64,000 nt of DNA from Chloroflexota bacterium. GTDB lineage: Bacteria; Chloroflexota; Limnocylindria; Limnocylindrales; CSP1-4. Below, piece after piece: positions 5,512-55,317 of the stretch. The position numbers and the translations under genes were made by a program. The notes beneath the pieces were generated by a model. The model was not told the origin of the DNA, ran no database searches, and saw only the letters and a list, made by a program, of their open reading frames with translations. Location of the stretch: positions 1-64,000 of the forward strand of contig JACPOS010000006.1 of NCBI GenBank assembly GCA_016191395.1, in the 5' to 3' direction. The stretch's first letter is position 1, and each line of letters begins with the position of its first letter.

Positions 5512-6195
5512 GTGACGAACGTCCTCGCCCTCGTGCCGGCCCACAACGAGGCTTCGCGCATCGCGCCCGTGATCCTTGGCGCCATCGGGCACGTGCCGGT
5601 CCTCGTCGTGGACGACGGGTCGACCGATGACACTGCCGGCGTCGCGGAGCGTGCGGGGGCCCGCGTGATCCGGCAGTCACCGAACCAGGGCAAGGGGGCC
5701 GCACTGCGCACCGGGTTTGGGGCGGCGCTCGAAGATGGCGCCGAGACGGTGATCACCCTCGATGGCGACGGCCAGCACGACCCGGCGGAGATCCCCGCGT
5801 TCCTCGCCGCCGAGCCGGCCGAGCTGATCGTCGGGCGGCGCGACTTCCGGCACATGCCCCCGGTGCGGCGGCTCTCGAACTGGCTCGGCACCCTGGCCCT
5901 CTCGACGGCGCTGGGCCGGTGGATCCCCGACAACCAGTCCGGCTACCGACTGGTCGGGCGGCGGCTCATGGCGGCAACCCTGCACAGCCGCGAGGCGGGC
6001 TTCGCGTTCGAGGTGGAGATGATCGCCATCTGCCTCCGGGAAGGCTGGGCGATCCGCTGGGTGCCGGTCCGGACGATCTACGGTGACGAGACGAGCCACA
6101 TCCGGCCGCTCCGGCACCTGCGCGAGTTCCTCGCGGTCACGGGCCGCGCACGGCGGATCGCCCGCGGCGGGCCGACGGAGACGGTCAGCGAATGA
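5512..6195 (+). CDS. glycosyltransferase family 2 (polyprenyl-phosphate sugar transferase-like)
   Basis: VPAHNEASRI, VVDDGSTDDT, TLDGDGQHDP. Confidence 0.93.
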   Translation: MTNVLALVPAHNEASRIAPVILGAIGHVPVLVVDDGSTDDTAGVAERAGARVIRQSPNQGKGAALRTGFGAALEDGAETVITLDGDGQHDPAEIPAFLAAEPAELIVGRRDFRHMPPVRRLSNWLGTLALSTALGRWIPDNQSGYRLVGRRLMAATLHSREAGFAFEVEMIAICLREGWAIRWVPVRTIYGDETSHIRPLRHLREFLAVTGRARRIARGGPTETVSE

Positions 6196-8602
6196 CGCCG
6201 AACGCGTCGATGTCCACCCGGACCCGCGCTCCGACGGAGACGACCTTGATCGTGTGCGTCCCGACCGAAGACCACGTCCTCGAGAACGCCACGAACCGGT
6301 ACGTGAACGTCGGGGCGTACAGGTCGACCGTGGCCGCCAGGACCCCATCGATCCAGATCTGGGCAACGCCCCTGCTGGCACCCTTGGTGGTGACGAACGA
6401 CAGGCTGCGCGCCGTCGTCGTGTACGTGGCAGAGGCGCCGGTGGCACGAAGGTACCGCTCTGTCCCGCCGGAGTAGCTGCTGTACGTGGTCGTCGTCGAC
6501 GAGCCCGAGAAGCGCACCGCGGTGCTGGACTGCTGGGTGAGGGCCGGATACAGGGTCGGGCCTACCGTCCAGGCCCCGAGATTGCCCGCATTGTCACGAG
6601 CGCGAACCTCGAAGCGATAGGTGTGGCCGGGCGCCATCGTGCGCGCCACGGACGTGGCAGTGATGCCGCTGTAGACGACCTCGAATGCCGCGCCGTCGTA
6701 GCTCCGGGCGAGGTCATAGCTCTGGATTCCGGCCGGGCCCACGTCGGTTCCGGACCAGGTCACGGTGATTGGAACTGCGCTGCCGCTGAGCGAGGCACCG
6801 GACCGGAGGCTGACCACCGGCGCTGACGTTGTCGGAGCCGAGCGGTCGATCACCTCGTTGATTACATTCGACCCGGCGCCAGGGTTGCCCGCAAGGTCGA
6901 TGAGCGTGCCATTGCCGACCTGGACGGTCAGGGTCCCGCTCGCCGGCGCGAGGTTGTCGACAGTGAAGTTGTAGTTGGCGCCCTGGCCGTATATCAGCTC
7001 CACCGTCCATGGCGTCGCGGCGTTGGAGGTGCCACCGAGCACGATGTCCGTCCGCTCGAAGCCGGTCACCGGCTCGTTGAACTGGACGGAGATCCCGAAG
7101 CTCGTGCCGACCGGCTCGCCACGCGTGGGGACGGCGTACAGGACCGCGACCGGCGGGTCCGTCTCGGCGGCAAAGCCCACGGTCGCCGGGACGGCGGCAG
7201 GTGGTCCCGTGTGCGCGGCGTAGTCCGTGACCGCGTTGGCGGCGAGGGTCAGGATCACGGAGCCATCAGGTGGTCCGCCGCCGCCTGCGTCGGCGACCAC
7301 GGTCACCGTGTACGCGGATGCCTTGCCGACGACGCCCTGGACGGTCCAGCCCGGCGACGTGCCGGTGACGACGAAGTCCTCGGGGGTCAGGCCGGTAACG
7401 GGCTCGCTGAAGATCAGCCCGAACCGCAGCGTGCGCGCCCCGGTCGGGTTGGGCACCATCGGTTTCAGGCCCAGGACGCTCGGCGGGGTCTGGTCCACCG
7501 CGGAGCCAGTTGTCGCGGCAATGCGGTTGGCCACGTCCTGCCGGAGCGTCGGGAAGGTGTCGTAGAACAGCTGCCCGGGGTCGGCAGTCTGGTTCACGTC
7601 CCGATGGGCGGATATGTTGTAGAGCCACTTGGTGGTGCCGGAGATCGGATTGACGTAGGTCGACGCGCCCTTCGGATCCAGGCCATGACGCTCGGCCTTC
7701 CAGGCGAGCAGGTTCACGAGGGTCGCCCTCGCGGCAGCCGTCGGCATCACGCTCGTGAAGTTGCCGAGCAGGGCGATGCCGACTGTCGCATCGTTGAATT
7801 GCATCGCGTGGGCGCCGCGAACGACGTTGCCCGCGAGATCCTCTTCCGTCGGGTTCACCGCGGGCGTGGAGATCCACGCGCGGCGCCCCTCGTAGACGCG
7901 GCCCTGCGCATCGATCAGGTAGTTGTATCCGATGTCCCCGTACCCGCGCAGCACGGCGTGGTCGTAGTAGATCGCCCGGATGGTCGCGGCGGGGTTCGGG
8001 TCGTTGTTCGCGCCGGCCGTGTGGTGGACGATCAGCTTCTGGACGGGACTGAAGCTGGGCGCGAAGCGCATGTAGCCGCCAGCATTCGTCGCGTACGACT
8101 CGTTCGCGCCCCACGCGGCGCGAGTGATGACAGCCGGTTGGCCGACCGCCGCGCTCACGACGCCGCTCTGATCGATGCCCTTCGATGCGTTCGTGTCCAT
8201 GGCGACGAGCTTCATGTCCGCGATGGGCCGATCCGTCGTGACGCGCGCCCACCGGGCGCCGTCCGCCCAGATCACCTCGCTGTAGTTCTTGTCGCCGTCC
8301 TCGCCGGACCCATCGGCAAGCCCAGCGGAGATCTCGTCGCCCAGGCGGTCCGGGGACTTTCCGAGCGCGATCGTGATCTGCGCATCCGGCACCCCCGTCC
8401 AGTGGAGCACGACGTGCGAAGCGGCGATCGGCAGCCGCACGAGAAGCTGGCGATCGACGCTGATGGCCACGGCCCGGCTGACGACGTCGACGCCGTTGCC
8501 CGGCAGTGCCGCGCGCAGGACGGGCAGGCCGGCGACGACGAGGATCGCGATCGCGATGCTCACCGCGAGCGGGGCGGCGAGGGGCCGGCGGGCAAGTCGC
8601 AT
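6185..8602 (-). CDS. N-acetylmuramoyl-L-alanine amidase/PGRP-domain secreted protein with Ig-like repeats
   Basis: 805 aa; ITRAAWGANES, LIVHHTAGAN, GDIGYNYLIDAQGRVYEGR, NISAHRDVN; repeated FSEPVTG/FNEPVTG Ig-like modules. Confidence 0.9.
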   Translation of the reverse strand: MRLARRPLAAPLAVSIAIAILVVAGLPVLRAALPGNGVDVVSRAVAISVDRQLLVRLPIAASHVVLHWTGVPDAQITIALGKSPDRLGDEISAGLADGSGEDGDKNYSEVIWADGARWARVTTDRPIADMKLVAMDTNASKGIDQSGVVSAAVGQPAVITRAAWGANESYATNAGGYMRFAPSFSPVQKLIVHHTAGANNDPNPAATIRAIYYDHAVLRGYGDIGYNYLIDAQGRVYEGRRAWISTPAVNPTEEDLAGNVVRGAHAMQFNDATVGIALLGNFTSVMPTAAARATLVNLLAWKAERHGLDPKGASTYVNPISGTTKWLYNISAHRDVNQTADPGQLFYDTFPTLRQDVANRIAATTGSAVDQTPPSVLGLKPMVPNPTGARTLRFGLIFSEPVTGLTPEDFVVTGTSPGWTVQGVVGKASAYTVTVVADAGGGGPPDGSVILTLAANAVTDYAAHTGPPAAVPATVGFAAETDPPVAVLYAVPTRGEPVGTSFGISVQFNEPVTGFERTDIVLGGTSNAATPWTVELIYGQGANYNFTVDNLAPASGTLTVQVGNGTLIDLAGNPGAGSNVINEVIDRSAPTTSAPVVSLRSGASLSGSAVPITVTWSGTDVGPAGIQSYDLARSYDGAAFEVVYSGITATSVARTMAPGHTYRFEVRARDNAGNLGAWTVGPTLYPALTQQSSTAVRFSGSSTTTTYSSYSGGTERYLRATGASATYTTTARSLSFVTTKGASRGVAQIWIDGVLAATVDLYAPTFTYRFVAFSRTWSSVGTHTIKVVSVGARVRVDIDAFGVIR

Positions 8603-8727: not shown

Positions 8728-9750
8728 TCAGCCGGCGGCGAGGCTCGTCGAGGCGCTGGGGATGCCCAGCCTGAGGTTCGGCAGCACCTCGCGCCCGAAC
8801 ACGTCGATGAACTCGCGCTGGTTGCGGCCCACGTTGTGGAGGTGGATCTCGTCGAAGCCCATGTCCACGTAGTGCTGGATGTGCTCCGCGTGCTTCGCCA
8901 GGTCGGAGGAGATCAGGACACGGTTCCGGAAGTCCTCCGGCCGGACCAGCTTCGCCATCGCCGCGAAGTCCTCGGGGTTCCGCACGTCCTGCTTCGGGAA
9001 CGGCATGCCACCGTTCGGCCACTCCGTCATCGCATTGCGCAGCGCCTCCTCCTCGCTGGGCGCCCAGCTGAGGTGGAGCTGGAGGAGCTTGGGGATCTTC
9101 AGCTTGCCCACCTCGGCGCAGCCCTCGTCGCAGGCCAGCCACAGGAGCTTGACCTTCTCGTCCGCCGCGCCGACGGTGATCATCCCCTGGGCGAACTTGC
9201 CGGTCTTCTTCGCGTTGATGGGGCCGGAGGTCGCGACGTAGATCGGGACGGGCTCTTCGGGGCGCGTGTACAGCTTCGCGCTCTCCAGGGTGAAGTGCGG
9301 GCCGCGGTGCTTCACCACCTTGCCGCGGAACAGCTTGTCGATGACTTCGATCGCCTCGAACATCATCGCCGAGCGGACGCCGATCTCCGGCCACTCGCCG
9401 CCGACGACATGCTCGTTGAGCGCCTCGCCGGCGCCCAGGCCCAGCCAGAAGCGCCCGGGGAACATCGCACCGAGCGTGGCCGCAGCGTGGGCGATCACCG
9501 CGGGGTGATAGCGGAAGCCCGGGCAGGTGACGGCCGCGCCGAAGCGCAGCGAGGTCCGCAGCCCGAGCGCGCCCATGAACGACCACGCGAAGCCGCTCTG
9601 GCCCTGCTGCGGCGTCCACGGGTGGAAGTGCTCCGAGACCATGAACCCGGCGAGGAAGCCGGCTCCCTCCGCCTGCTCGCACCAGTCCAGCAGGTCGTTG
9701 GGGTGGAACTGCTCCATCGAAGCCGCGTAGCCGATCGTTGCCATCGGCAC
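8728..9750 (-). CDS. LLM-class F420-dependent oxidoreductase (G6PDH-related)
   Basis: MPMATIGYAASMEQF..., ISSDLAKHAEHIQHYVDMGFDEIHLHNVGRNQ. Confidence 0.88.
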   Translation of the reverse strand: MPMATIGYAASMEQFHPNDLLDWCEQAEGAGFLAGFMVSEHFHPWTPQQGQSGFAWSFMGALGLRTSLRFGAAVTCPGFRYHPAVIAHAAATLGAMFPGRFWLGLGAGEALNEHVVGGEWPEIGVRSAMMFEAIEVIDKLFRGKVVKHRGPHFTLESAKLYTRPEEPVPIYVATSGPINAKKTGKFAQGMITVGAADEKVKLLWLACDEGCAEVGKLKIPKLLQLHLSWAPSEEEALRNAMTEWPNGGMPFPKQDVRNPEDFAAMAKLVRPEDFRNRVLISSDLAKHAEHIQHYVDMGFDEIHLHNVGRNQREFIDVFGREVLPNLRLGIPSASTSLAAG

Positions 9751-9791
9751 ATGGTACGAGCCGGGGCTCCAGCGCCGTACGATGGTGGTCC

Positions 9792-11201
9792 ATGGACCTG
9801 GAGCTGTTCGTCACGCCCGGCCTCGGGGACGCCTCGTACCTGCTCGCGAGCGGCCGTGATGCGGTCCTCGTGGATCCACAGCGCGACGCCTGGCGGTTCC
9901 TCGAGGTCGCCGAGGAGCACGGCTGGCGCATCCGCCACGTCCTCGAGACGCACGTCCACAACGACTACCTCTCTGGCGCGCTGGAGACGCAGGCGGCGAC
10001 GGGCGCCGAGATCGCGGCGCCCGCGCGTGGCGGCTACGAGTTCCGGCACCGCGCCATGGACGAGGGCGACGCAATCGAGATCGGCAGCCTCCGGCTCACG
10101 GCCTGGGCGACGCCGGGCCACACGCCCGAGCACCTCGCGTGGGCGGTGGAGGACCTTGGCTCCTCGGATCCGCTCGCCTCGGCCACCCCGGACGCCGTGT
10201 TCACGGGCGGGAGCCTCATCGTGGGCTCGGCTGGGCGGACGGACCTGCTGGGGCCGGCCCTGACCGACGCGCTCACCGCCGACCAGCAGGGGAGCCTGCG
10301 CCGCCTCGCGGAGCTGCCGGACGGGGTGGAGATCCTGCCGACGCACGGCGCGGGCAGCTTCTGCAGCGCCGGCCCGGGATCAGCGCGCCGGGTCACGAGC
10401 ATCGGCGCGGAGCGGTTCGCAAACCCCACGTTCGCGCTCGCCGGCGCCGCGCCCGACGCATTCCGGGCACAGGCACTTGGCGATCTCGGGCGGTTCCCCG
10501 CCTACTACGCGCACATGGCGGGGCTGAATCGACGGGGCCCGCGCGTCCTGGGGCGCCTGATCCTGCCGCCGGCCCTGGCCCCGGCGGCCTTCGAGGCCGC
10601 GGCCGCGGGCGGCCGAACGATCGTGGACGCGCGCGACCGCGAGGCCTTCGCGGGGGGTCACATCCCGGGCTCGCTGAACATCGAGCTCGACGGCACGTTC
10701 GCCGGGTACGTCGGCTGGCTGGTGCCGTTTGCCGCGCCCGTGCTGTTCGTCCTGCCGGACGGCGCGCCCGACGCCCTCGCCCAGGCGACGACCGAGCTGC
10801 TGCGCATCGGCTACGAGTGGGTGCCGGGCTGGCTCCAGGGCGGCGTGGCGGCGTGGGCGGAATCCGGGCGCCCGCTCGCCAGCTACGACACCACGACGAT
10901 GCGGGCCGTCCACGACGAGCGCGCTGGCGGCACCGACCCGGGGATCCTCCTCGACGTCCGCCAGCCCATCGAGTGGGCAAACGATGGCGTCATCCCCGGG
11001 GCGGAGCGGATCTTCGTGGCAGACCTGCCGGCCCGGATCGCCGAGCTGCCTGCCGGCAGCCGAGTCACCGTGTTCTGCAAGTCCGGCTCCCGTGCGGCGA
11101 TCGCCGCGAGCCTCCTCGACGGCGCCGGCGTGGACGTGCGCCTCGTGCCCTCCGGCGGCGCCGCTCGCTGGCCGGACCCCCTGGAGATGCTCGCACCCTG
11201 A
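9792..11201 (+). CDS. MBL-fold hydrolase fused to two rhodanese domains (persulfide dioxygenase/CstB-like)
   Basis: LETHVHNDYLSG, TPGHTPEH; rhodanese DARDREAFAGGHIPGSLNIELD and C-terminal VTVFCKSGSRAAIAAS active Cys loop. Confidence 0.9.
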   Translation: MDLELFVTPGLGDASYLLASGRDAVLVDPQRDAWRFLEVAEEHGWRIRHVLETHVHNDYLSGALETQAATGAEIAAPARGGYEFRHRAMDEGDAIEIGSLRLTAWATPGHTPEHLAWAVEDLGSSDPLASATPDAVFTGGSLIVGSAGRTDLLGPALTDALTADQQGSLRRLAELPDGVEILPTHGAGSFCSAGPGSARRVTSIGAERFANPTFALAGAAPDAFRAQALGDLGRFPAYYAHMAGLNRRGPRVLGRLILPPALAPAAFEAAAAGGRTIVDARDREAFAGGHIPGSLNIELDGTFAGYVGWLVPFAAPVLFVLPDGAPDALAQATTELLRIGYEWVPGWLQGGVAAWAESGRPLASYDTTTMRAVHDERAGGTDPGILLDVRQPIEWANDGVIPGAERIFVADLPARIAELPAGSRVTVFCKSGSRAAIAASLLDGAGVDVRLVPSGGAARWPDPLEMLAP

Positions 11202-51162: not shown

Positions 51163-51849
51163 TTGGACGTGCCGCCCCTCAACCGCATTCGGAGGCCATT
51201 GGCCACGTCCGAGTCGACTCGAGCACGCCGCTTCGCCCTGCCGGACCTCGCTGACGAGCGCACCGGAGCGTCGATCGAGGCGTTCCTCGACGGCCCCGGT
51301 GTCCGTCGGGGACGAAAGATCTCGAGGGCGATTGCCGAGCCGCCGCAGGCCGACGGCGAGGCGTCGACGGCCCTCATGGCGCCGGCCGCCGCGCGGGTGC
51401 CGGGGCCACCACGGCAGTCCCCGGAGCTTCGGACGCTCCCCGGGCGACTCGAGTGGAACGCGGCCCTCGCACGCGAGAGCGTCCGCGCCGCCCGCTACGC
51501 GCGACCCGCCGCAGTCGCCATCGTGGAGCTCAAGCCGGATCGGCCCGGCGCGGACATCGATCCCTGGCTGCGCTCCATCGCCGGCCCCATCGCACGCGCC
51601 CTTCGCCAGGACTGCCGCGCGACCGACCTCGTCGCCCGGGTGGCCAGCACGCGCTTCCAGATGCTCCTCCCCGAGACGTCAGAGGAGGGCGCGGCGACGC
51701 TGGCCGAGCGCGTCGCGGAGCAGTGCCGGGCGTTGATCCAGTCGACCGGCGCACCCGTCGCGGTTCGCGTGTGCGTCGCCGGAACCGGCATTGACGACAC
51801 GCTGGACGAGGCTCTCGCGCACGCTCTGCGCATGATCGAGGCTGCCTGA
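51163..51849 (+). CDS. degenerate GGDEF-fold protein
   Basis: LEWNAALARESVRAARYARPAAVAIVEL ... IARALRQDCRATDLVARVASTRFQMLLPETSEEGAATLAERV. Confidence 0.7.
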   Translation: MDVPPLNRIRRPLATSESTRARRFALPDLADERTGASIEAFLDGPGVRRGRKISRAIAEPPQADGEASTALMAPAAARVPGPPRQSPELRTLPGRLEWNAALARESVRAARYARPAAVAIVELKPDRPGADIDPWLRSIAGPIARALRQDCRATDLVARVASTRFQMLLPETSEEGAATLAERVAEQCRALIQSTGAPVAVRVCVAGTGIDDTLDEALAHALRMIEAA

Positions 51850-51855
51850 CCGCCC

Positions 51856-51931
51856 CCACTTCGGAGTACCTTCGCACGTGACATTGCCGTCACGGACAAT
51901 AAGGTTGCGCTGGAACCCTAGTCCGAAGTGG
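51856..51931. repeat. 10-bp inverted repeat with nested hairpin
   Basis: CCACTTCGGA (51856-51865)/TCCGAAGTGG (51922-51931); inside it CGTGAC-ATTGCC-GTCACG (51877-51894). Confidence 0.6.
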
Positions 51932-51988
51932 TCGTCCTGTCGGGAGGCGACGATGCGCGCAAGGCTGGGGTGTACGTTCGGATCAGTT

Positions 51989-52130
51989 CTAACTCAGTTG
52001 AGCAAGGACCTCTACGGTGGGTGGTCCCTCATCGAGGCGGATCCAGTTGAGTCAGTCCCGAAGGTGGTTGAGGAGCTGAGGGCAGCCCGCAAGGCACTCG
52101 AAAGGATCGCTGCCGTAATGCAGGAGCCAG
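51989..52130 (+). repeat. 142-bp exact direct repeat, copy 1
   Basis: CTAACTCAGTTGAGCAAGGACCTC...GTAATGCAGGAGCCAG, identical to 53650-53791. Confidence 0.95.
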
Positions 52131-52259
52131 CCACAGATAAGCGGCCCTCCTCAGACCCGCCCTCGGCGCGTGGCCCACATCAAGGGTTCTGCCGGGTTGT
52201 GCTTCTGCAGAAACACGCCGACGGTTGCCCCCATCGTTCAACACATGGGAGGAAGATCA

Positions 52260-53111
52260 ATGAAACGACCCGGCGTAAGCTCCACCGTTGCCCTTGCCTT
52301 TGCCGCGACAGTCCTAGTTGCCCCAGCACCGACCCTCGCGGCCGAGGGTCCGGTCGGGCTGTCGTCGGCCCAAGTGTCCAGCCTCCTCGACTCGATGCCG
52401 GCGGATGAAAGGGCGATACGTTCCTCCGAGCTCTTGGGCGGCAGCCGCGTCCTGCTCGGCTATGTGCAGATGTGGGTCGCACCCGACGGTTCCGGCTCGA
52501 AGCAATCCGTGACCACGACGTCCGGGACGCGGACAACCACAAGCTCGAGGTCGAAGCTCAGCGGGAAGTCCGCGACGGATGGGGTCTCGACATCGGGCTT
52601 TGGGGAGTTCGTCTACAACGGCCTCTACATCTCAATTTCGGTGGAGTGGGACTCGTCCATTCGTTCGGAGTACCGGTATCCGGTGACGGCATACTTCGAC
52701 TGGCAGGGCACCGGTCAACCTTGGAATGGCCGTACGGGAACCGACGGTCTGGCCGTGTACTGGGGGAACCAACTGGCTTTGCTGGGTGACTTTTTCTGGG
52801 GCAAGTATCGAGACGGCTCGAACCTCCAGAACCTGTCCCGGTCGTCGGCGCCGCCAAACCAGGGCGTCGGCTGGAAGTTCTGGGAAGCGAAAGCCAACTC
52901 TCCTTTCGGCTCGATCGCCGACTATGGCTACATGAACGTGACCGCGGCGCGAGCAAACTTCACCAATTTCATCACCAACTTCACGGTGGAATACATCCAC
53001 ACCTGGGCGACCAACAACTACACGTTCCTATGGGGCGCCGGACCGTCAGTTTCCTTCACCCCGTCGTCGAGCTCCGAGTCAATCAACGCATCGGCCAGTA
53101 TTCGAACATGA
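52260..53111 (+). CDS. secreted protein of unknown function
   Basis: 283 aa; MKRPGVSSTVALAFAATVLVAPAPTLAAEG signal peptide; Trp/Tyr-rich beta-like body. Confidence 0.8.
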   Translation: MKRPGVSSTVALAFAATVLVAPAPTLAAEGPVGLSSAQVSSLLDSMPADERAIRSSELLGGSRVLLGYVQMWVAPDGSGSKQSVTTTSGTRTTTSSRSKLSGKSATDGVSTSGFGEFVYNGLYISISVEWDSSIRSEYRYPVTAYFDWQGTGQPWNGRTGTDGLAVYWGNQLALLGDFFWGKYRDGSNLQNLSRSSAPPNQGVGWKFWEAKANSPFGSIADYGYMNVTAARANFTNFITNFTVEYIHTWATNNYTFLWGAGPSVSFTPSSSSESINASASIRT

Positions 53112-53554
53112 GGCGCTTGATTATCGGCGCGATCGCGCTCGTGCTGTCCGGCTGCACCCTCTTCCCCACGCCTTCGCCGCCGCCGCCGGTCCTGCTTGTG
53201 TCGGTCGATACCCCCGACGGAACGATCGGGGTCTTCAAGAACGAGCGTGGAGTCCATCTGTGGCTGGTCAATCAGGACACTGGCGCGCAGAAGGTGACGC
53301 CGACTCCAACCGTCCACCTCTTCACGTTGGGTGGAGAGACCGGTCGCACCTACAATTCGTTCGTGTTCGGGGCGGCTCCACCCGGGGCAGCCAGGGTTGA
53401 ACTGGCAGGTCTCCAGGCCATCGGCGGTGAGGTGAAGGGCGGGGTCTACATACTCGCCCTCCGCGACAAGAGCATTCTTCCGACCCAACTCAACTGGAAG
53501 TTCGTGACTGAATTCGGTGCCGTCGTGGTGCAAGGCTCGAACATCACGGACTAG
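53108..53554 (+). CDS. predicted lipoprotein of unknown function
   Basis: MRRLIIGAIALVLSGCTLFP lipobox; 4-bp ATGA overlap with upstream gene. Confidence 0.8.
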   Translation: MRRLIIGAIALVLSGCTLFPTPSPPPPVLLVSVDTPDGTIGVFKNERGVHLWLVNQDTGAQKVTPTPTVHLFTLGGETGRTYNSFVFGAAPPGAARVELAGLQAIGGEVKGGVYILALRDKSILPTQLNWKFVTEFGAVVVQGSNITD

Positions 53555-53649
53555 AGCAACGTTGAACGGGCGGCCCGGCTCCAATGAGCGGGTCGCCCTC
53601 ATACGCACGAGGCGGTCGGCGGAGATCACCTAGGAGGCCGTTCCCGTTC

Positions 53650-53791
53650 CTAACTCAGTTGAGCAAGGACCTCTACGGTGGGTGGTCCCTCATCGAGGCG
53701 GATCCAGTTGAGTCAGTCCCGAAGGTGGTTGAGGAGCTGAGGGCAGCCCGCAAGGCACTCGAAAGGATCGCTGCCGTAATGCAGGAGCCAG
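53650..53791 (+). repeat. 142-bp exact direct repeat, copy 2
   Basis: Identical to 51989-52130 by direct reading. Confidence 0.95.
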
Positions 53792-54075
53792 GATCAGACG
53801 CCTCCCGCAGCATGAGATCGGGGCGGATTGACGCGCGGGCCTGTGACCTTCACCAACGCTATGTGAGCCGAGGGTTTCTGTCGCGTAGCCACCTGGTGAA
53901 TGCTGGTCACTGGCAATCGGACCGTCGGGCGGGAGCGCACGCTCAGAAGGCCACCAATTGCATGGCCAAGGGCTGCCTAGATAGTCGCCAAACGACTTGA
54001 TGGCGGGAAGTTGGTGACGAGTATTCGTCCGGGGCATAGACGGCAGGAATCGCGAGCCGGGGTCTCGGCCCGAGA

Positions 54076-55317
<1,242 letters not shown>

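What the first reader, a model, noticed from the sequence alone, without database searches (positions are those of the whole stretch)
51989..53791. Two-gene secreted/lipoprotein cassette bracketed by exact 142-bp direct repeats
Seen directly: 51989-52130 and 53650-53791 are identical over 142 bp and the identity breaks at both edges. Between them lie only a signal-peptide protein (52260-53111) and an ATGA-coupled lipoprotein (53108-53554), neither resembling a family I recognise, in sequence that looks less GC-extreme than the surroundings. In both copies the repeat is open in a frame encoding [47 protein letters not shown], an amphipathic-helix-like segment, with different upstream and downstream contexts. 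Inference: recent tandem duplication, recombination-mediated insertion, or a cassette able to loop out by homologous recombination between the repeats. This is the best candidate for an undescribed system in the window.
Basis: partly seen in the sequence, partly recalled or inferred. Interest (0 to 1): 0.72.

Follow-up and report, generated by a model that had tools for sequence, protein, structure and literature searches.

The report
Horizontally acquired two-gene islet between repeats
A Chloroflexota bacterium known only from a draft assembly carries a small foreign insert of two genes, for an exported protein and a lipid-anchored partner, between two identical 142-base repeats; related bacteria carry the same gene pair at other chromosomal sites, so it looks like a tiny mobile islet of unknown benefit rather than a new kind of system.

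Summary
In detail: 51989-52130 and 53650-53791 are identical over 142 bp, and these are the only two copies in the genome. The genes between them are a real, co-inherited pair: a secreted protein (P1) and a lipoprotein (P2). Full pairs occur at 8 further loci in 7 genomes of the same family; P1 is in 8 of 107 family genomes. No Pfam, NCBIfam, PHROGs, PADLOC or PDB family matches. The loci sampled lie beside mostly unrelated genes, and gene trees cross genus lines. In same-genus relatives the flanking genes (GGDEF-domain protein, thiolase) are only ~3-250 bp apart against 2.2 kb here, so ~2 kb of low-GC DNA was inserted. One relative carries the pair on a 2.3-kb islet in tRNA-Val, with a 46-47-bp tRNA repeat at both ends and no integrase. 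Best reading: a mobile two-gene islet whose direct repeats are recombination scars. The insertion is well supported. That the 142-bp repeats are its ends, and which enzyme acted, is inferred. Several relatives lack repeats, and the repeat resembles nothing known. Function is unknown; secreted effector plus protecting or anchoring lipoprotein is a guess. Small direct-repeat-flanked islets are a known kind; the protein pair appears undescribed.

The parts
51850..54075 (.). Whole low-GC inserted interval between the GGDEF-domain gene and the thiolase gene; absent or only ~3-250 bp long in same-genus relatives
51989..52130 (+). Left copy of the 142-bp direct repeat; coding-like in frame 1, no homologue found
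52260..53111 (+). P1: 283-aa secreted protein with signal peptide; lineage-specific family
53108..53554 (+). P2: 148-aa lipoprotein, ATGA overlap with P1; low-confidence all-beta model
53555..53649 (+). Hairpin region after P2 (z -2.3), possible transcription terminator without a T run
53650..53791 (+). Right copy of the 142-bp direct repeat
51980..51986 (+). GGATCAG, possible 7-bp target-site duplication, left member (2 bp outside the left repeat)
   Evidence: about 0.7% by chance at random window places, noticed after the fact, and the 7-mer is common in the window
53791..53797 (+). GGATCAG, right member, overlapping the last base of the right repeat
51163..51849 (+). Left flanking gene: GGDEF-domain protein (not part of the insert)
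54076..55317 (-). Right flanking gene: thiolase (not part of the insert)

Best explanation
A roughly 2-kb horizontally acquired islet carrying only the P1-P2 pair was inserted between a GGDEF-domain gene and a thiolase gene by recombination. The 142-bp direct repeats are the left and right scars of that event, comparable to attL and attR. The islet has no recombinase of its own, so one acted in trans (a tyrosine integrase or host recombination). Shown: the repeat, the insertion relative to relatives, the co-inherited pair, the sporadic and largely non-syntenic distribution, and the tRNA-Val-bounded relative. Inferred: that the 142-bp repeats, rather than some other edge, are the junctions; the enzyme; and continuing mobility. 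For the proteins I commit, with low confidence (about 0.3), to a secreted effector acting on other cells or the envelope with a membrane-anchored lipoprotein that protects or anchors it.
For: Empty sites: the flanks are syntenic in the genus relatives that span both, with short gaps in most. Low GC of the whole interval. Co-inherited pair, 9 loci in 8 genomes including the window, P1 in 8 of 107 family genomes and not outside the family in a 400-genome phylum sample. Varied gene contexts: GGDEF/thiolase, tRNA-Val/thrS, FAA hydrolase/ECF sigma, purF-like, starch synthase. Both gene trees join G043 (genus g4) with G032 (g19), and G107 (g4) with G004 (g1), at 94-100% bootstrap support. In G043 the pair lies on a 2.3-kb islet between an intact tRNA-Val and a 46-47-bp copy of its 3' half, while tRNA-Val sits beside thrS in most relatives examined. 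The same tRNA-Val hosts other small islets, one with a tyrosine integrase. The host genome has three tyrosine recombinases, one close to a tRNA gene.
Against: Several pair loci with both flanks available (G002, G004, G107) show no direct repeat above 14 bp. The repeats lie 139 and 284 bp inside the low-GC interval, so they may not be its exact ends. A 142-bp identity is long for a site-specific core. The repeat has no match to a tRNA, an Rfam family, or anything in relatives. Two contig ends next to pairs in G007 are not repeated elsewhere in that genome. No close strain is available to see precise presence/absence.
Confidence: 0.55

Rival explanations
1. The pair was inserted by an unrelated route, and the 142-bp repeat arose separately by local duplication of a gene fragment (for example a tandem duplication followed by a deletion), so the repeats are not islet ends.
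For: The repeat looks like a piece of coding sequence; it lies inside the low-GC interval; other pair loci lack repeats.
Against: Needs two events that happen to bracket exactly the two genes; a relative's pair is also bracketed by direct repeats of a different sequence.
Confidence: 0.25
2. Transposition-type event: a composite unit bounded by two copies of a 142-bp element, with the 7-bp GGATCAG as target-site duplication.
For: GGATCAG lies just outside the left copy and at the end of the right copy (about 0.7% by chance at random places).
Against: No terminal inverted repeats noticed, no further copies in the genome, no transposase in the islet, and the 7-mer is frequent in the window (25 sites).
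Confidence: 0.1
3. Integron-type cassette with attC-like repeats.
For: One- or two-gene unit between direct repeats of attC-like length.
Against: Neither strand of the repeat folds better than shuffles (z 0.37 and -0.05); the consensus RYYYAAC/GTTRRRY ends are not met, by eye.
Confidence: 0.02
4. Assembly artefact: one repeat copy or the junction was created by the assembler.
For: Draft, metagenome-type assembly; repeat length is near a common maximum k-mer and read length (own knowledge).
Against: The copies are 1.5 kb apart with different flanks and lie inside a 115-kb contig; insertion and pair are supported independently by relatives.
Confidence: 0.06

Closest known systems
Integrase-less genomic islets at tRNA genes, and additive flexible genomic islands marked by recurring tRNA-end repeats (e.g. 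tRNA-Lys repeats in Methylophilaceae, PMC10872708)
   Same: Direct repeats mark the units; the relative's copy in G043 uses a tRNA half as the repeat and has no recombinase inside
   Different: In the window the repeat is 142 bp, not from a tRNA, and the site is intergenic
Tycheposons (PMC10872708, PMC11389934)
   Same: Cargo inserted at tRNA genes, tyrosine recombinase association in the tRNA-Val islets of relatives
   Different: Described as 4-200 kb elements with a tyrosine recombinase; here ~2 kb with two genes and no tRNA
Integron gene cassettes / CALIN (PMC11389934)
   Same: One- or two-gene units between repeats, recombinase in trans
   Different: Repeat is not attC-like; no array of the same repeat
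Secreted toxin with immunity lipoprotein (general organisation, own knowledge)
   Same: Exported protein followed by an overlapping lipoprotein gene; sporadic distribution
   Different: No sequence or confident structural similarity to any toxin or immunity family; activity untested

Membership tests
Integrative genomic islet | Absent from the same chromosomal site in relatives | tested here: met
Integrative genomic islet | Direct repeats at both junctions | tested here: inconclusive
   Repeats bracket the genes but exact insertion edges cannot be fixed because relatives' intergenic DNA is not alignable
Integrative genomic islet | Own or helper recombinase | tested here: inconclusive
   None inside; three tyrosine recombinases in the genome, link not shown
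tRNA-targeting element | Repeat equals part of a tRNA gene | tested here: not met
   Not met in the window; met for the G043 relative
Integron cassette | Structured attC site | tested here: not met
Composite transposon / insertion sequence | Transposase and multiple copies | tested here: not met
   Only two repeat copies in the genome; the two genes match no transposase family
Secreted toxin-immunity pair | Homology to known toxin/immunity or defence families | tested here: not met
Secreted toxin-immunity pair | Toxicity of P1 relieved by P2 | not testable with these tools
   needs expression experiments
Phage or plasmid element | Relatives of P1 or P2 in phage, viral or plasmid records | tested here: not met
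   P1; P2: viral contigs only

The most novel reading that the evidence does not exclude
The P1-P2 pair is one cargo of a lineage-wide cassette system in this Chloroflexota family, in which one- or two-gene units flanked by direct repeats (tRNA-Val halves at the main site, other sequences elsewhere) are moved by a tyrosine integrase acting in trans, an integron-like trade in secreted and envelope proteins without attC sites.
Probability: 0.12. Interest if true: 0.65.

Novelty: new member of a known kind. Interest (0 to 1): 0.35.

Why it matters
It gives an undescribed, co-inherited pair of exported proteins that appears to spread among little-studied Chloroflexota on islets barely larger than the two genes, which poses a testable question of how cargo without its own recombinase moves. 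It also points to tRNA-Val/thrS as an integration hotspot in this family, including tandem single-gene units.

Tried and rejected
Pfam, NCBIfam, PHROGs, PADLOC and PDB sequence searches for P1 and P2: nothing convincing. AlphaFold2 of P1 failed (pLDDT 32); P2 gave an all-beta model (pLDDT 64) with no significant PDB fold match. The 47-aa repeat peptide: no hits in phages or plasmids, none in viral contigs by a degenerate pattern; weak PDB hits to carbon monoxide dehydrogenase C-termini (E 0.08) and to the end of an NCBIfam iolE model (E 0.055) are mutually exclusive and chance-level. tRNA remnant in the repeat: 12-bp D-arm-like match, not significant (p 0.07). attC-like folding: no. Contig ends beside pairs: enriched (within 500 bp, 6 of 9 against 1.4 expected; within 450 bp, 4 of 9 against 1.25, p 0.02; thresholds chosen afterwards), but the two ends tested are not repeats.

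Full report
OBSERVATION. The two 142-bp copies are exact and end sharply, and the assembly holds no further copy. The two reading frames between them are as described. The unit is low in GC, but so is the whole interval between the flanking genes: 51850-54075 is about 60-67% GC by segment, the flanking genes 72-74%.

THE GENES ARE A REAL PAIR. Searches of relatives find P1 with P2 beside it at eight loci in seven genomes of the same family, with P1-P2 order kept. A ninth, divergent locus in G007 (contig C93) has a P1 relative followed by a lipoprotein-like gene that the P2 profile did not report. Identities to the window are 22-31% for P1 and 25-41% for P2. P1 occurs in 8 of 107 family genomes and not outside the family in a sample of 400 genomes of the phylum. 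P2 also occurs without a recognisable P1; the two nearest to the window's P2 (60% and 55%) are in G007 and G013, the G007 one downstream of a gene with a UPF0236 domain, which I take to be transposase-like. No protein family or solved structure matches either protein. Two relatives were named by the genome collection as Chloroflexi metagenome assemblies.

IT MOVES. The gene neighbourhoods differ: GGDEF/thiolase here; elsewhere tRNA-Val/thrS, an FAA-hydrolase and ECF sigma factor, a purF-like gene, a starch synthase. A comparison of neighbouring proteins finds shared neighbours only among G107, the divergent G007 C93 locus and the P2-only loci of G013 and G131 (a secreted protein, ABC ATPase, two-component genes), plus one short match between G007 C97 and G013. 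Trees of P1 and P2 both put G043 (genus g4) with G032 (genus g19), and G107 (g4) with G004 (g1); bootstrap/SH-aLRT support is 99-100% except 94/91 for the first pairing in P2. Horizontal transfer is the simplest reading, though ancient paralogues with losses are not excluded.

INSERTION SITE. The flanking order (iron-sulphur protein, GGDEF-domain gene, thiolase) is kept in much of the genus; in some relatives the GGDEF-domain gene itself is not detected. From the printed sequences I count by eye gaps of about 3 (G004), 27 (G009), 31 (G008), 50-60 (G011) and 220-250 bp (G012, G014), against 2226 bp in the window. G003 and G006 hold other, different genes at this spot, so it tolerates insertions. 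Intergenic sequence is too diverged to fix the exact edges. GGATCAG just outside both repeat copies could be a target-site duplication (about 0.7% by chance, noticed afterwards), but the word is frequent in the window.

A RELATIVE WITH CLEARER ENDS. In G043 the pair lies between an intact tRNA-Val and a 46-47-bp copy of its 3' half. The islet is 2.3 kb and holds P1, P2 and one further small frame without a Pfam match. tRNA-Val lies beside thrS in most of the 30 loci examined, so G043 is an occupied site. The same tRNA carries other small islets in the family, one with a tyrosine integrase (L162) and one series of three one-gene units separated by tRNA-Val 5' halves in G006, a member of the window's genus. 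The window's unit has similar spacing (1.66 kb against 1.65-2.95 kb) but its repeat is not significantly similar to tRNA-Val.

MECHANISM. I infer that the islet arrived by recombination with a recombinase supplied in trans and that the 142-bp repeats are its scars. The insertion is solid; the role of the repeats is the uncertain step, because other pair loci have none and the repeats lie inside, not at, the low-GC edges. Homologous recombination between the copies could delete the pair, but nothing here shows that it does.

FUNCTION. Signal peptide plus overlapping lipoprotein, sporadic occurrence and a neighbouring ABC transporter at one locus (G007 C93) fit a secreted effector with a protecting or anchoring partner. 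No sequence or structural test supports a toxin; the P1 model failed and the P2 model has no significant fold match.

NOVELTY. Small direct-repeat-marked islets and trans-mobilised elements are a known kind (compare the tRNA-Lys-repeat islands of PMC10872708 and the elements reviewed in PMC11389934). The protein pair appears undescribed, and the find is of moderate interest.

Noticed in passing
L160 (G006 contig C91), 1540-8080: Three one-gene units of 1.7-3 kb in tandem, separated by 39-41-bp copies of the tRNA-Val 5' half next to an intact tRNA-Val; repeats extend to ~120 bp at 61-82%.
   Followed up: partly
L162 (G115 contig C51), 1181-10582: 9.3-kb island between a tRNA-Val 5' half and an intact tRNA-Val beside thrS, with a tyrosine integrase at 9452-10417; L161 and L164 carry what look like truncated versions of this integrase.
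   Followed up: partly
L036, L091, L096: P1/P2 relatives near a shared family of secreted proteins without a Pfam match; two-component genes are shared by L036 and L091, an ABC ATPase by L036 and L096.
   Followed up: partly
L168 (G000 contig C15), 5114-5189 and about 5939-6421: A tyrosine recombinase close to a tRNA-Gly in the window's own genome, a candidate integrative element; its ends were not found.
   Followed up: no
window 51850-51988: Inverted repeat CCACTTCGGA/TCCGAAGTGG between the GGDEF-domain gene and the left repeat; folding not better than shuffles (z -0.91).
   Followed up: partly
L100 (G003) and L101 (G006), same intergenic site: Other, unrelated genes occupy the GGDEF/thiolase interval in these relatives, which suggests a permissive insertion site.
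   Followed up: no
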